Origin: Daejeonella lutea
GTDB lineage: Bacteria; Bacteroidota; Bacteroidia; Sphingobacteriales; Sphingobacteriaceae
DNA length: 64,000 bases
Assembly: GCF_900168015.1 (NCBI RefSeq)
Contig: NZ_FUYR01000001.1
Span: forward strand, 742,943 to 806,942
Direction of reading: 5' to 3'
The translations under genes and the position numbers were made by a program. Position 1 is the stretch's first letter. Each line of letters starts with the position of its first letter. Of the stretch, positions 9,323 through 22,966 are shown one piece after another. Below the pieces are notes generated by a model that made no database searches, had not been told where the DNA came from, and was given only the letters and a program-made list of their open reading frames with translations.

Positions 9323-9859
9323 ATGCCCGTATTGATAACTGCAGGCTTAAGTCCGGAATCGTACCGGCTTGAGCGGATTTTGGGAGAAGCGAGAACCGAG
9401 AAGCGAGAAACGAGAAGTGGAGAACGAGATGCTCAGCCTGTGGTATTTGCCGATGTGAGTGAGCTTCCACAGCTTCCTGGAAAGACAAGTTTGGTAATAC
9501 CGCATTATGACTCCCCAAGTTTTGTCCACGAAACCTTAAAAGCCTGTCTCGATCTTGGTATCACAAAAGTATACCCTTTAAGGATTGGAGAAATTCGTGA
9601 GCTCGCTAAAGCAAGAGACCTTTTTGATGAATACCAGATCAGGCTGATGATCCCATCCAATGAATGGCTTGATAAAAAGGCAAATAAGGTGGCTCAAAAG
9701 GCAGGCGAGATAAGTGTGCTGGACGGGGGAATGCTAGTAGCAGGAGTGGCAGTGGGCAATGATATGCAATTGAAAAATGAGACCGGCGTATTTAGCCGGG
9801 CAACCAAAGAACAAAAAACAGAGTATAGCTTATATTTAGTGAATGATGCTGGAATATAA
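9323..9859 (+). CDS. Isolated pre-ATP-grasp-like domain protein
   Basis: This 178-residue protein resembles the N-terminal Rossmann-like domain of ATP-grasp enzymes of the carbamoyl-phosphate-synthase/PylC kind: MPVLITAG at the start, VVFADVSELPQLP, then SLVIPHYDSPSFVHETLKAC, then ITKVYPLRIGEIRELAKARD and IRLMIPSNEWLDKK. The ATP-binding domain expected next is absent. The C-terminal part (SVLDGGMLVAGVAVGND) is unrecognised. Residues 21-36 (GEARTEKRETRSGERD) are encoded by a degenerate GCGAGAAACGAGAAG-type word repeat. It overlaps the HAD gene by 17 bases. Family assignment is my inference. Confidence 0.6.
   Translation: MPVLITAGLSPESYRLERILGEARTEKRETRSGERDAQPVVFADVSELPQLPGKTSLVIPHYDSPSFVHETLKACLDLGITKVYPLRIGEIRELAKARDLFDEYQIRLMIPSNEWLDKKANKVAQKAGEISVLDGGMLVAGVAVGNDMQLKNETGVFSRATKEQKTEYSLYLVNDAGI
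9382..9432. repeat. Word repeat inside a coding sequence
   Basis: Six imperfect copies of GCGAGAA(C/A)/CGAGAAG run through codons 21-36 of the gene at 9323, keeping the frame open. The words resemble the intergenic CAAGAACCAAGA families elsewhere in the window and look like an insertion into an ancestral domain. Confidence 0.65.
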
Positions 9860-10507: not shown

Positions 10508-12031
10508 ATGATAATTAAGTCAACTATTCAAAAGCTTGTAATCCTGACCTTTGGTGTTCTGATTGGCTTTTCTGCATGTAAGAAAGATCCAAAACCTACT
10601 CCAACACCCGTTACACCGCCAGTCGTAACACCACCAACCAGAGCAGAGCTCACTAAAGATTCTATATTCCTGTATGCCGCACAAACCTATTACTGGAATG
10701 AGCCATTCCCATCATATGATGCTTTTAAACCACGCAGTTATGCTAGTAACCAGGCGGTGTTAGATGCTATTATTAAATTGCCGGGAACAGGCAAGCCTGT
10801 AGATAAGTATTCCTTCCTGGATGATGGATCTGTTTCATCAGAACTAGGCGGGGTAAGCGGTGACTATGGTTTTTCTGTTTTTTATAATGGTACGACCCCA
10901 ACAAGCGACCTGCGGATCAAGTATGTTTCTCCGAACTCGCCAGCAGCCGGCAAAGGGCTTAAGCGCGGATACCGGATTACCAAGATCAACGGCAGAACTG
11001 AACTGAGTACTGGTGCAGATGCTAACGTTGCTTTTGTGAGTGATGCTGTATTTGGATCGGCCAATACGGTGAGTCTTACTGTTCAAAAGCCGAACGGAAC
11101 AACAGAAGACGTAGTAGTTAATCGCGGTACATATGCCACCACACCGATATTCCATACCTCGGTGCTAACGGCGGGCAGCAAGAAAGTAGGTTATATTGTA
11201 TTCAATAGCTTTACTACCAACTCCCGAGATGCCCTGACAGCAAAGATGGCCGAGTTTACTGCGGCCGGTGTTACCGAGCTTGTTGTCGATTTGAGGTATA
11301 ATGGAGGTGGTTCTGTTGCAACAGCCGATGTGTTTACCAATCTGATAGCACCAGCATCATTGAACGGGACCACCATGTATACTACGTTCTGGACCAAAAC
11401 GATGCAGGATGGTAAAGCTAGTATTTTATCAAATCAACCACTAACAGACGGCAATGGTAAATTACAGCCATTTACTGGCGGGGTAAATGGAGTATATGCT
11501 ACATATGCTGACATTGATTACAAGCCTGCGGCAAACAGAGAGGTTTTTGCGAAAGTTGGTTCTGCGAATATCAGCAAGGTTTATTTCTTGGTTCTTTCAG
11601 GAACAGCCTCTGCGAGTGAGCTACTTATCAATAACTTGAAACCGCATATGGATGTTAAGCTAATTGGAAGGACAACTTACGGTAAGCCAGTTGGATTCTT
11701 TGCCATCGGCATTGATAAGCTTGACCTTTATATTCCACAGTTTGAAACCAAGAATTCACAGAATGTCGGCGGTTACTACACCGGTATGACACCTGATTTC
11801 ACTGTTGCAGATGATGTGACAAAAGATTTTGGCGACAAAACCGAATCATTACTAGCAGCAGCTCTGAGCTATTCCGAAAAAGGAACATTTAGCCTGATTA
11901 AGCCGAATACGACTATCAGCAGTGTTAAACCCATGTCGGTAAAAGAAGCTGAAGTGATGACTGATAAACTTGATGGAAACAGGTTTAGAGGGATGAGTTA
12001 TGATAAGAAGTTGAAGTTGAAACAGAAGTAA
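10508..12031 (+). CDS. S41 family C-terminal-processing peptidase, lipoprotein
   Basis: A 507-residue protein. The signal peptide ends in the lipobox GFSAC (Cys near residue 24), then a Pro/Thr linker, so it is a membrane-anchored periplasmic or surface protein. A PDZ-like segment lies around residues 115-210 (IKYVSPNSPAAGKGLKRGYR) and the S41 domain from about 215. The catalytic dyad fits Tsp: Ser368 in GTASASE and Lys393 in TYGKPVG, the same 25-residue spacing as Ser430/Lys455 of E. coli Tsp. The substrate is unknown. It is followed by a long inverted repeat and then a terminator. Confidence 0.9.
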   Translation: MIIKSTIQKLVILTFGVLIGFSACKKDPKPTPTPVTPPVVTPPTRAELTKDSIFLYAAQTYYWNEPFPSYDAFKPRSYASNQAVLDAIIKLPGTGKPVDKYSFLDDGSVSSELGGVSGDYGFSVFYNGTTPTSDLRIKYVSPNSPAAGKGLKRGYRITKINGRTELSTGADANVAFVSDAVFGSANTVSLTVQKPNGTTEDVVVNRGTYATTPIFHTSVLTAGSKKVGYIVFNSFTTNSRDALTAKMAEFTAAGVTELVVDLRYNGGGSVATADVFTNLIAPASLNGTTMYTTFWTKTMQDGKASILSNQPLTDGNGKLQPFTGGVNGVYATYADIDYKPAANREVFAKVGSANISKVYFLVLSGTASASELLINNLKPHMDVKLIGRTTYGKPVGFFAIGIDKLDLYIPQFETKNSQNVGGYYTGMTPDFTVADDVTKDFGDKTESLLAAALSYSEKGTFSLIKPNTTISSVKPMSVKEAEVMTDKLDGNRFRGMSYDKKLKLKQK

Positions 12032-12035
12032 GTAG

Positions 12036-12113
12036 TACGTTGTACGTTTTACGTTATACGTCTGGGTGGATAAGCGAGCGTTTAGTTACGTACAACGTAA
12101 AACGTACAACATA
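12036..12113. repeat. 26-bp inverted repeat, ACGTTGTACGTTTTACGT family
   Basis: The left arm (12036-12061) and the reverse complement of the right arm (12088-12113) agree at 24 of 26 positions around a 26-base loop. Each arm is itself built of TACGTTGTACG and TTTTACGT words. In RNA this would be a very long stem just past the S41 peptidase stop codon. Confidence 0.9.
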
Positions 12114-12138
12114 TAACTTTCCTCATCGCACTGTAAAT

Positions 12139-12880: not shown

Positions 12881-12900
12881 TTGGAGGAAGGATCGAGAGT

Positions 12901-13062
12901 CAAGAATCAAGTATCAAGTATCAAGTATCAAGAACCAAGAATCAACCTGCCTGTCGGCAGGCAGGGATTTCCACAAAGCGTAGGGGACGCAGAAAAATGT
13001 GATAGCTTCTGGTTTACGCCGATTCCAGCGAAAGCCTGCCTACCGCAGGCAGGCTGGAACCT
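12901..13062. repeat. CAAGTATCAAG word array plus palindromes
   Basis: 12901-12945 is an array of CAAGTATCAAG/CAAGAACCAAG words. It is joined to a palindrome CCTGCCTGTCGGCAGGCAGG at about 12946-12965. At 13021-13062 lies a REP-like element starting GATTCCAGCGAAAGCCTGCC with CCTGCC/GGCAGG and CCAGC/GCTGG arms nested inside each other. No gene lies between the peroxiredoxin and cold-shock genes (about 320 bases). Confidence 0.8.
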
Positions 13063-21180: not shown

Positions 21181-21891
21181 ATGATCAATAAAGTAGTTAC
21201 TGATGCTGATGAAGCAATCCGGGACATAAGCAATGGCATGACTTTGATGCTGGGTGGTTTTGGGCTCTGCGGTATTCCTGAGAACTGTATTAATGCCCTT
21301 GTAAAGAAGGGAACAAGTGATCTTACCTGCATATCTAATAACGCAGGAGTTGATGATTTTGGAATTGGGCTGATGCTGCAGCAAAAACAGGTGCGCAAGA
21401 TGATCTCTTCCTATGTAGGTGAAAATGCAGAATTTGAACGGCAGTTACTCTCGGGGGAACTGGAAGTTGAGCTTATTCCGCAGGGTACCCTGGCTACGCG
21501 CTGCATGGCTGCAGGCTACGGGATGCCGGCAATATTTACACCCGCAGGAGTAGGCACCGAAGTAGCCAAAGGAAAGGAAGTACGCAATTTTAATGGCAAG
21601 GATTATCTTATGGAAGCAGCTTTTGAAGCTGATTTTGCAATCGTGAAGGCTTGGAAGGGTGATACTGCAGGTAACCTTGTTTACCGTTCTACCGCAAGAA
21701 ACTTTAATCCGGTTATGGCCATGGCAGGCAAAATTACTATCGCAGAAGTTGAAGAGCTGGTGGAAGTAGGAGAACTCGATCCGGATCACGTTCACACCCC
21801 GGGTATTTTTGTACACCGGATCTTCCAGGGGAGGGACTATGAGAAAAGGATAGAGCAGAGGACGAATAGAAAGGCAGAACGAGAAATTTGA
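21181..21891 (+). CDS. scoA: 3-oxoacid CoA-transferase subunit A
   Basis: 236 residues with the alpha-subunit pattern: INKVVTDADEAIRDISNGMT, LMLGGFGLCGIPENCINAL (CoA-binding glycines), ISNNAGVDDFGIGLML, VELIPQGTLATRCMAAGYGM and FTPAGVGTEVAKGKEVR. With ScoB it moves CoA from succinyl-CoA to acetoacetate. The C-terminus (RKAEREI) runs into the left inverted repeat of the inserted element, so the last residues are probably element-derived. The operon partner scoB begins 418 bases downstream instead of the usual few. Confidence 0.95.
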   Translation: MINKVVTDADEAIRDISNGMTLMLGGFGLCGIPENCINALVKKGTSDLTCISNNAGVDDFGIGLMLQQKQVRKMISSYVGENAEFERQLLSGELEVELIPQGTLATRCMAAGYGMPAIFTPAGVGTEVAKGKEVRNFNGKDYLMEAAFEADFAIVKAWKGDTAGNLVYRSTARNFNPVMAMAGKITIAEVEELVEVGELDPDHVHTPGIFVHRIFQGRDYEKRIEQRTNRKAEREI

Positions 21892-21912
21892 AGATTTGTT
21901 AATTTGATGATG
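21884..21912. repeat. Left inverted repeat of four-helix-bundle element
   Basis: The 29-base arm containing ATTTGTTAATTTGA matches the reverse complement of 22271-22299 at 24 of 29 positions. It overlaps the scoA stop codon and ends three bases before the small gene starts. Confidence 0.85.
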
Positions 21913-21914
21913 CT

Positions 21915-22268
21915 ATGCGAAACGACAAAGAAAATCTGATTGTGACTTTGACATTCGATTTCGCTCTGCAGATAATCAGATGTTCAAGGGAATTGCAAAA
22001 AAAACGTGATTACTCATTGGCTGATCAGTTACTTCGGGCAGGGATTTCGATCGGAGCCAATGTCAAAGAAGCTCAAAATGCAGAAAGTAAGGCAGATTTT
22101 ATTCATAAAATGAAAATAGCGGCGAAGGAAGCTGATGAAGTGGAATACTACCTTGAACTTATCTCGCAATCTGAATATCTTTCGGTATCTGATGTACCCA
22201 CGCAACAAATACAATCTATCGTCAAGGTATTATCAAAAATAATTGCTTCGGCAAAATCGACGACTTAG
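21915..22268 (+). CDS. Four-helix bundle protein (23S rRNA IVS/S23 family)
   Basis: A 117-residue all-helical protein. The marks of the IVS-encoded four-helix-bundle family are TFDFALQIIRCSRELQKKRDY, LADQLLRAGISIGANVKEAQNAES and DFIHKMKIAAKEADEVEYYLELI. Such proteins are encoded in 23S rRNA intervening sequences and as free genes in many bacteria; a related fold is Avd of diversity-generating retroelements. The function is unknown. Here the gene sits in the scoA-scoB operon in the same direction, bounded by inverted repeats, and nearly fills the element. No reverse transcriptase or rRNA is near. Confidence 0.92.
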   Translation: MRNDKENLIVTLTFDFALQIIRCSRELQKKRDYSLADQLLRAGISIGANVKEAQNAESKADFIHKMKIAAKEADEVEYYLELISQSEYLSVSDVPTQQIQSIVKVLSKIIASAKSTT

Positions 22269-22270
22269 TA

Positions 22271-22303
22271 CATTTTCAAATTAACAAATTTTCAAATCAT
22301 CAT
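22271..22303. repeat. Right inverted repeat of four-helix-bundle element
   Basis: CATTTTCAAATTAACAAATT and the following TTCAAATCATCAT form the reverse complement of the left arm at 21884-21912 (24 of 29). It begins two bases past the stop of the small gene and ends six bases before the scoB start. Confidence 0.85.
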
Positions 22304-22309
22304 ATTGAA

Positions 22310-22966
22310 ATGTTAGATAAAGACGGAATTGCAAAGCGCATTGCGCGGGAAATAAAGGACGGATATTACGTAAACCTGGGAATTGGTATACCGACGCTGG
22401 TAGCGAACTATATTCCTGAAGGTATAAATATTGTACTCCAGTCGGAGAACGGCCTGCTGGGCATGGGACCATTTCCTTTTGAGGGAGAAGAGGATCCGGA
22501 CCTGATCAATGCCGGCAAGCAGACCATAACTACTTTGCCAGGTTCTGCGATATTTGATTCAGCCTTAAGTTTCGGGATGATACGTTCGCAGAAAGTGGAC
22601 CTGACCATACTTGGTGCGATGGAAGTTTCTGAGAAAGGTGATATTGCTAACTGGAAGATCCCAGGTAAAATGGTAAAAGGTATGGGTGGTGCCATGGATT
22701 TGGTGGCTTCTGCTAAAAACATTATTGTTGCCATGCAGCATGTAAATAGGGCGGGTGAAAGTAAGCTGCTTCCGGAATGTAGCCTGCCGCTTACAGGAGT
22801 CAGGTGTGTGAAAAAGATAGTCACCGAACTTGCAGTATTAGAAATTGTACCACAAGGGGGTTTTAAGCTGCTTGAAAGAGCTCCGGGGGTAACTGTTGAG
22901 GACATTCAGAAAGCAACTGCGGGTGAGTTAATTATTGAAGGAGAGATTCCTGAAATGATGTTGTAG
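22310..22966 (+). CDS. scoB: 3-oxoacid CoA-transferase subunit B
   Basis: 218 residues. The catalytic glutamate is Glu46 in QSENGLLGMGPFPF, which forms the glutamyl-CoA thioester. Other family marks are GYYVNLGIGIPTLVANY, TTLPGSAIFDSALSFGMIR, DLTILGAMEVSEKGDIANW and KMVKGMGGAMDLV. It is the partner of ScoA for ketone-body or acetoacetate activation. Translation must now start after the inserted element, as the six bases before the ATG (ATTGAA) carry no ribosome-binding site. Confidence 0.95.
   Translation: MLDKDGIAKRIAREIKDGYYVNLGIGIPTLVANYIPEGINIVLQSENGLLGMGPFPFEGEEDPDLINAGKQTITTLPGSAIFDSALSFGMIRSQKVDLTILGAMEVSEKGDIANWKIPGKMVKGMGGAMDLVASAKNIIVAMQHVNRAGESKLLPECSLPLTGVRCVKKIVTELAVLEIVPQGGFKLLERAPGVTVEDIQKATAGELIIEGEIPEMML

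What the first reader, a model, noticed from the sequence alone, without database searches (positions are those of the whole stretch)
21884..22303. Four-helix-bundle gene as an inverted-repeat cassette inside the scoA-scoB operon
A 420-bp block separates scoA and scoB. It carries only a four-helix-bundle (23S IVS/S23-type) gene bounded by arms of 29 bases with 24 matching positions in inverted orientation. The left arm starts in the scoA stop codon and the right arm ends six bases before scoB. No transposase is present, so the unit looks like a compact passenger moved in trans, or the free form of the rRNA intervening sequences in which this family is also found. As RNA the arms would pair, making the whole gene one long hairpin, as in rRNA IVSs that RNase III trims. 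The block is in frame with operon direction, so host expression may be kept.
Basis: partly seen in the sequence, partly recalled or inferred. Interest (0 to 1): 0.72.

Follow-up and report, generated by a model that had tools for sequence, protein, structure and literature searches.

The report
Helix-bundle gene inside matched repeat arrays
A small protein gene wedged between two metabolic genes sits between mirrored arrays of an 8-letter repeat, and relatives of that gene in several bacterial phyla sit between similar 7- or 8-letter arrays, which links two puzzles until now treated apart: where such short repeats come from and what this protein family does.

Summary
A PF05635/TIGR02436 four-helix-bundle gene (21915-22268) separates scoA and scoB, bounded by inverted arms (21886-21912/22271-22297; 24 of 27 match). 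The arms are octamer arrays (ATTTGNNN).

The pattern is general. Of 132 family copies (congeneric genomes plus a phylum sample), 73 have a left and 83 a right array; 71 and 82 of these have period 7 or 8 (shuffles: 5 of 396 reach the score). Units differ between copies but follow the protein tree (7/8 changes: 3, against at least 13 shuffled). Window-clade copies across Bacteroidota have octamers. All 15 plasmid copies examined, 12 cyanobacterial, have an array on at least one side.

Gene-less palindromes with the same units are dispersed, and are commoner where the cognate gene exists (four units; one-sided p 0.001-0.03, uncorrected for phylogeny). One lies in this window, flush with a stop codon.

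The scoA-scoB copy is old: 40 of 92 window-clade loci share the site, and it tracks scoA (Mantel r 0.71).

Best reading: an rRNA-IVS-type element outside rRNA that works like REPIN-RAYT without a transposase. Binding of the repeat by the protein, and the enzyme that moves it, are inferred.

The parts
21181..21891 (+). scoA, 3-oxoacid CoA-transferase subunit A; its stop codon lies inside the left arm
   Evidence: TIGR02429 279.5 bits; coordinates
21886..21912 (+). left arm: about three octamers (ATTTGAAG ATTTGTTA ATTTGATG) plus ATG
   Evidence: inverted repeat I1; sequence
21915..22268 (+). four-helix-bundle (23S rRNA IVS protein / S23, Avd-like) gene, 117 aa
   Evidence: PF05635 85.4 bits, TIGR02436 97.5 bits, model pLDDT 92.3 with four helices, best PDB match 2RLD
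22271..22305 (-). right arm: inverted octamer array (read on the minus strand ATATGATG ATTTGAAA ATTTGTTA ATTTGAAA ATG); the part that pairs with the left arm is 22271-22297
22310..22966 (+). scoB, 3-oxoacid CoA-transferase subunit B
   Evidence: TIGR02428 324 bits
12029..12119 (.). gene-less palindrome of ACGTTNT heptamers; its left end overlaps the stop codon of the ORF before it. The unit is that of another four-helix-bundle gene of this genome (L004, G000:C8:492145)
   Evidence: folds as DNA hairpin, z -4.0
12893..12945 (+). gene-less period-7 array, AGTATCA-type unit, as in the arms of the gene at L008
17174..17224 (+). gene-less period-7 array, AAGAACC-type unit, as in the arms of the gene at L012
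4416..4442 (+). gene-less period-7 array, AGTTGAC unit, as in the arms of the gene at L014
4351..4381 (+). gene-less period-7 array (AGAGCAA-type unit)
9384..9416 (+). gene-less period-7 array (GAGAAGC-type unit)

Best explanation
The block is an rRNA-IVS-type genetic element that lives outside rRNA: one gene for a small S23/Avd-type four-helix-bundle protein between two inverted arrays of an 8-bp repeat. Different protein clades go with different 7- or 8-bp units. Gene-less palindromes made of the same unit (arm, short spacer, arm, same polarity) are dispersed in genomes and look like dependents of the gene. Most likely the protein, by homology a pentameric ring, recognises its own repeat array as DNA and so regulates itself, protects or helps to copy the unit, while an unidentified host or mobile enzyme does the cutting and joining. 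Lying flush with stop codons leaves neighbouring genes and operons intact. The scoA-scoB copy is an old insertion passed on mainly with its operon and decaying in some species. Shown: architecture, unit-clade link, palindromes, co-occurrence with the gene, old shared site, purifying selection in one close species pair. Inferred: binding of the repeat, a role in its spread, the partner enzyme.
For: Own genome: 9 of 11 PF05635 hits have inverted arms that none of 60 shuffles reach, with different sequences. Genus: 69 of 103 copies exceed the 95% point for flanks of different copies; phylum sample 20 of 29. Arrays in 132 copies: left 73 (59 of period 7, 12 of 8, 2 other), right 83 (65, 17, 1 other); the two arms share a period in 50 of 52 two-armed copies; shuffles reach the score in 5 of 396. 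Polarity: G exceeds C in 57 of 73 left arrays (10 the other way) and in 74 of 83 right arrays read inward (7 the other way). Units follow protein clades on a tree of 120 proteins; 7/8 period changes 3 against 13 or more in 200 shuffles. Window clade in named Bacteroidota, 78 copies: 31 of 32 left and 48 of 49 right arrays have period 8, and 26 of 26 two-armed copies. Plasmid copies: 15 of 15 have an array on at least one side, 14 on both; 11 of 12 cyanobacterial ones have an inverted-arm score of 14.5 or more. Palindromes: 18 neighbouring array pairs in order +-, 2 ++, 2 --, 1 -+; 16 of 16 pairs in all listed G000 hits are +-. Cognate co-occurrence in 20 genomes: ACGTTNT p 0.0014, AATTACG 0.0038, AGATNTG 0.0093, ATTTGNNN 0.026, one-sided (counts). 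dN/dS 0.10 between the G015 and G005 orthologues. Fold: 2RLD, 2GSC, then DGR Avd 4DWL.
Against: No binding or mobility experiment exists. No target-site duplication was recognised at scoA-scoB, and none was sought systematically. The window's own octamer has no dispersed copies in its own genome: the single hit is its own right arm. In the own genome the nearest other copy is 43% identical to the window protein, so current movement of the gene-bearing unit is not shown. 34 of 103 genus copies do not exceed the 95% cross null. The co-occurrence tests ignore phylogeny and the gene lists were drawn up by me from tree and arms; for AGATNTG genomes counted as without the gene have up to 79 hits (several carry sister-clade genes) and for AATTACG up to 13. 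In the phylum sample only 8 of 118 genomes have the exact octamer array; all 8 also have PF05635, but 82 of 90 genomes with PF05635 lack it. One cyanobacterial copy (L315) has arrays that do not match each other and one (L307) has arrays in both orientations on its left.
Confidence: 0.68

Rival explanations
1. Passive passenger: heptamer and octamer arrays arise by slippage or by another enzyme, and the small gene merely tends to land in them.
For: Arrays without the gene are common: 6 in the window, 11 of period 7 and 9 of period 14 in 400 kb. No movement is seen directly.
Against: Unit and period follow the protein clade; the window clade keeps an octamer across Bacteroidota, at 26 groups of sites; cognate arrays are commoner where the gene is.
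Confidence: 0.1
2. RNA-level element as in rRNA IVSs: the arms exist to form an RNA stem that RNase III trims or that protects the mRNA, and the repeats are incidental.
For: Minimum-energy RNA fold pairs the arms; own arms exceed the cross-copy 95% point in 19 of 78 window-clade copies; RNase III excises the Coxiella IVS (PMC4990558, passages).
Against: No bias to G-U-compatible mismatches on the sense strand (75 against 70; 67 against 88, the latter leaning the other way). Conserved period and G-rich strand are not needed for a stem. The whole-block fold is only z -2.07, 6 of 100 shuffles folding as well.
Confidence: 0.12
3. A domesticated regulator of scoAB: the gene and arms are kept because the protein binds the arms and controls the operon.
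For: The site is shared by 40 of 92 window-clade loci and tracks scoA (Mantel r 0.71, largest of 999 permutations 0.25); purifying selection in one pair.
Against: Lost, decayed or replaced in most of the genus: of 18 genomes with scoB hits, 4 have the gene intact, 3 a decayed gene, 2 a gene-less palindrome, 2 gaps of 8 and 10 bp, 7 gaps of 53-132 bp. The same clade sits at many other sites.
Confidence: 0.1

Closest known systems
23S rRNA intervening sequences with an S23p/IVP gene (e.g. the Coxiella burnetii IVS, PMC4990558, passages read)
   Same: Same protein family; about 430 nt; terminal inverted repeats; tandem heptamers beside the gene whose number varies between strains; decaying gene.
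   Different: Lies between two protein genes, not in rRNA; octamer arms; gene under purifying selection in one close pair; gene-less palindromes with cognate units exist in relatives.
REPIN-RAYT systems (PMC8049555, abstract start seen in a listing; the rest recalled)
   Same: Single gene flanked by a repeat; dispersed gene-less palindromes with the same ends; long persistence.
   Different: The protein is a non-catalytic helix bundle, not a Y1 (RAYT) transposase; units are 7- or 8-bp tandem arrays.
Heptamer repeats: TAACTGA in Beggiatoaceae, Cyanobacteria and Bacteroidetes (PMC4679880, abstract, passages and two sections read); GGGAATC in Xanthomonas and similar repeats in Nostoc (PMC4692102, passages read)
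   Same: Intergenic tandem heptamers; in Xanthomonas 70 and 75 convergent inverted pairs in two genomes. TAACTGA reversed and complemented is a rotation of AGTTATC, the arm unit of the clade L089/L106/L114 here.
   Different: In what was read no protein was linked to them; MacGregor leaves open that a repeat-binding protein is the mobile part, and Rehm et al. generally found no mobile elements beside them.
Avd of diversity-generating retroelements (4DWL; PMC10053308, passages read)
   Same: Same fold; structural matches.
   Different: Sequence identity 10-13% in the fold match; whether a reverse transcriptase accompanies these genes was not searched for.

Membership tests
PF05635 / TIGR02436 four-helix-bundle (23S rRNA IVP) family | score above the curated cut-offs | tested here: met
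   85.4 bits against 33.8; 97.5 against 24
PF05635 / TIGR02436 four-helix-bundle (23S rRNA IVP) family | four-helix fold of S23 proteins | tested here: met
   four helices, pLDDT 92.3; 2RLD E 7e-6. Pentamer not tested
23S rRNA intervening sequence | inserted in an rRNA gene | tested here: not met
   lies between scoA and scoB; no rRNA family in 21600-22600
23S rRNA intervening sequence | terminal inverted repeats around an S23 gene | tested here: met
23S rRNA intervening sequence | excised from RNA by RNase III | not testable with these tools
   only a fold
REPIN-RAYT | RAYT (Y1 tyrosine) transposase gene | tested here: not met
   the gene between the arms is PF05635 only; no other family was reported for it. 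A transposase elsewhere in the genome was not searched for
REPIN-RAYT | dispersed palindromes sharing the repeat of the gene's flanks | tested here: inconclusive
   met for the ACGTTNT unit of another copy in this genome; not met in this genome for the window's own octamer, though G005, G014 and G015 have many hits
MITE of a known transposon | target-site duplication and ends of a transposase-bearing parent | tested here: inconclusive
   no duplication recognised by eye at scoA-scoB; no parent with a transposase sought
Diversity-generating retroelement | reverse transcriptase with template and variable repeats | not tested
   no search for reverse transcriptases was run

The most novel reading that the evidence does not exclude
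A class of two-part bacterial elements in which a non-catalytic, probably pentameric helix-bundle protein is paired by a clade-specific code with 7- or 8-bp repeat arrays: a gene between inverted arrays, and dependent gene-less palindromes. It would be the common source of heptamer repeats reported separately in cyanobacteria, Bacteroidota, Beggiatoaceae and Xanthomonas, and rRNA intervening sequences would be the copies that landed in rRNA.
Probability: 0.5. Interest if true: 0.9.

Novelty: new variant of a known kind. Interest (0 to 1): 0.8.

Why it matters
Short heptamer repeats between bacterial genes and the S23/IVP proteins have each been reported for years without an accepted role. In the papers seen here nobody joins them: the searches were made, in open-access papers only. 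If each protein clade reads its own repeat unit, the origin of these repeats becomes directly testable, a new protein-repeat code can be worked out from public genomes, and rRNA intervening sequences become one case of a wider element. It also warns against guilt by association: such genes sit flush inside operons, for example between cas6 and cas4 or cas10 and a cmr3-like gene on cyanobacterial plasmids, and may look functionally linked to genes they only separate.

Tried and rejected
A genome-wide copy of this exact arm: rejected, the 15-mer with one mismatch occurs three times in the genome, two of them in its own arms. A recent insertion at scoA-scoB: rejected by the shared site and Mantel result, though scoAB copies are not one clade on a weakly resolved tree (12 changes, at least 24 in 100 shuffles). 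Selection on sense-RNA pairing: no mismatch bias. Known RNA family: none in 21600-22600 (two sub-threshold matches on the other strand, in scoB). Viral contigs: 80 pattern matches, none confirmed. In the phylum sample the octamer array was too rare for a useful test. YN00 dN/dS failed for most pairs and dS was saturated against the window gene. One search built its catalogue from some proteins read on the wrong strand; it was discarded and redone, and nothing from it is used. Rows dropped: 1 of 104 copies before and 2 of 80 before (short flanks); 12 of 132 before the tree (short proteins); decayed copies without an open frame are not in the catalogue.

Full report
Observation. The window holds scoA (21181-21891), a 117-aa ORF (21915-22268) and scoB (22310-22966) in one direction. 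The small protein is PF05635/TIGR02436. Arms of 27 nt with 24 matches flank it. Read closely, both arms are tandem octamers in the same register: left ATTTGAAG ATTTGTTA ATTTGATG, right (minus strand) ATTTGAAA ATTTGTTA ATTTGAAA preceded by ATATGATG. The arm score is beyond 60 shuffles and above the 95%, not the 99%, point for flanks of different copies.

Own genome. The genome (4.03 Mb) has 11 PF05635 hits. Nine of 11 have flanking inverted arms not reached in 60 shuffles, but with different sequences: GTATCAA, TTTTACG, GGCATTA, AGAACCA, AGTAATC, AGTTGAC, CTGAAAA and similar. They are tandem arrays of period 7, or 8 for the window copy. The two others scored like shuffles; one is a 126-bp partial match below the cut-off. 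The exact arm of the window occurs only at this locus apart from one one-mismatch hit.

Genus and phylum. In 20 congeneric genomes 18 have family members. A catalogue of 104 copies was made and 103 could be scored: 69 exceed the 95% point of pairings between left and right flanks of different copies, 33 the 99% point. In a sample of 29 copies from the phylum, 20 exceed the 95% point. In the 132 copies together, 73 left and 83 right flanks hold an array of score 10 or more; 71 and 82 of these have period 7 or 8, while shuffled left flanks reach the score in 5 of 396; the two arms have the same period in 50 of 52 copies. The strand read towards the gene is G-rich: 57 against 10 on the left, 74 against 7 on the right.

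Unit follows protein. On a tree of 120 proteins (103 columns, many forks unresolved) clades share units: AATTACG, AGTTGAC, AGAGTTG, ACGTTNT, AACCAAG, AGTTATC, AGTATTG, AGATATG, and octamers in the window's clade and two others. The period changes 3 times against at least 13 in 200 label shuffles. Part of this is shared descent at one site; the window clade separates the two. Among 80 named loci found with the window clade 78 could be scored: 31 of 32 left and 48 of 49 right arrays have period 8, and 26 of 26 two-armed copies. With 12 congeneric loci these fall into 26 groups by flanking genes, 15 of them single loci, some on short contigs. Own arms match each other above the 95% cross point in 19 of 78.

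Other phyla. A search of plasmid records with the protein of L106 gave 25 records, mostly cyanobacterial. I looked at 15. Of 12 cyanobacterial copies 11 have inverted arms of score 14.5 or more, with units such as GGGTGTA, GGGAGTA, AGGAGTC, ACAGGTG and AAAAGGG; one (L315) has arrays that do not match each other; one (L307) has both orientations on its left; one (L311) is an octamer (no shuffle control was run for this set). Gemmatirosa (octamer), Azospirillum and Riemerella copies (heptamers) have arrays on both sides.

Gene-less arrays and palindromes. The window has six further period-7 arrays and none of period 4, 5, 6, 8 or 12; 400 kb of the genome has 11 of period 7 and 9 of period 14, 6 of period 11, one each of 2 and 3, none after shuffling. 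The ACGTTNT unit, which flanks the gene at L004, was followed up. In 20 chosen loci plus the window site, neighbouring arrays lie in the order + then - 18 times, ++ 2, -- 2, -+ 1, with spacers of 8-182 bp; in all listed hits of this genome 16 of 16 pairs within 300 bp are +-, and in the listed part for G013 11 are +-, 3 ++, 2 --. This is the polarity of the gene's own arms. Sixteen of 18 palindromes have an ORF stop codon within -9 to +6 bp of an outer end. For gene-bearing units the left arm starts within 10 bp of an upstream ORF stop in 56 of 105, against 4.3% for random positions. Tight gene junctions may account for part of this, since empty scoA-scoB gaps are only 8-10 bp.

Co-occurrence. 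Array hits were counted in 20 genomes for four units, with reversed-pattern controls near zero. Leaving out listed hits in the gene's own arms, genomes with the cognate gene have more: ACGTTNT 83, 63, 14, 4, 1, 0, 0 against one 1 and twelve 0 (p 0.0014); AATTACG p 0.0038; AGATNTG p 0.0093; ATTTGNNN p 0.026 (one-sided, no correction for phylogeny, gene lists drawn up by me). Against it: AGATNTG arrays reach 79 in a genome without that exact clade, AATTACG 13; the window's own octamer has no dispersed copies in this genome. In 118 genomes of the phylum the exact octamer array is in 8, all with PF05635; none of the 28 genomes without the family has it, but neither do 82 with it.

History at scoA-scoB. 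Of 18 congeneric genomes with scoB hits, 4 have the gene intact, 3 a decayed gene, 2 a gene-less palindrome with ATTTGTC-type octamers, 2 gaps of 8 and 10 bp and 7 gaps of 53-132 bp (with 12 for a remnant in G008). On a scoA-scoB protein tree close sisters differ: G005 has the gene and G014 the palindrome, G018 a decayed gene and G019 the palindrome. Across the phylum 40 of 92 window-clade loci are at this site; since the search keeps the best matches to the window protein, that share is biased upward. Gene and scoA distances agree (Mantel r 0.71, largest of 999 permutations 0.25, n 40), so the copy has mostly moved with its operon. dN/dS is 0.10 for the one unsaturated pair.

Mechanism. The model has four helices (pLDDT 92.3) and matches S23-family structures 2RLD and 2GSC and more weakly Avd. 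PMC4990558 (passages) states that the Xanthomonas protein is a homopentamer ring. A ring that meets a repeat every 7 or 8 bp, a unit that follows the protein, and dependents that share unit and polarity suggest that the protein recognises its array. The arms fold as RNA (z -2.07), but mismatches show no bias that sense-RNA pairing would leave, so a DNA-level role is preferred. What cuts and joins the DNA is unknown.

Known things. IVSs of 23S rRNA share protein, size, terminal repeats and, in Coxiella, heptamers whose number varies between strains (PMC4990558, passages and one section). MacGregor's TAACTGA repeat (PMC4679880, abstract, passages, two sections) is, reversed and complemented, a rotation of AGTTATC, the arm unit of the clade L089/L106/L114, whose right arm ends just before the next gene's start. 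Rehm et al. (PMC4692102, passages) found convergent GGGAATC pairs in Xanthomonas and generally no mobile elements beside them. In what was seen, no paper links the protein to the repeats. The cyanobacterial STRR literature is recalled and appears only in listings.

Verdict. The association is strong; function and movement remain inferred.

Noticed in passing
L307, L312, L311 (cyanobacterial plasmids): Four-helix-bundle genes with heptamer or octamer arrays lie between cas6 and cas4 and between cas10 and a cmr3-family gene; PMC10910872 names 23S rRNA IVP in a figure legend on CRISPR-associated genes (legend passage seen only), so some such links may be hitch-hiking.
   Followed up: partly
window 12029-12119 and L285-L303: ACGTTNT palindromes share inner motifs by eye, CTGGGYGGATA after the left arm and GCGTTTAG before the right arm.
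   Followed up: no
G009:C5, G017:C60, G013:C2, G005:C7, G004:C95, G003:C55, G018:C11: Two family genes lie about 1.7-1.9 kb apart on the same strand in seven congeneric genomes.
   Followed up: no
L052 and L063 (scoA-scoB of G014 and G019): A gene-less palindrome of about 145 bp with ATTTGTC-type octamers occupies the site where close relatives have the gene or its remnant.
   Followed up: partly
L223 (CALPIE020000040.1): A metagenome record titled Bifidobacterium breve carries a scoA-gene-scoB block like those of Bacteroidota; probably a mislabelled or mixed bin.
   Followed up: no
G000:C4:96045-96347: A decayed family copy with three stops still has recognisable inverted heptamer arms.
   Followed up: no
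own genome, 400-kb sample: Besides period 7, arrays of period 14 (9) and 11 (6) are enriched over shuffling; the 14s may be double heptamers.
   Followed up: no
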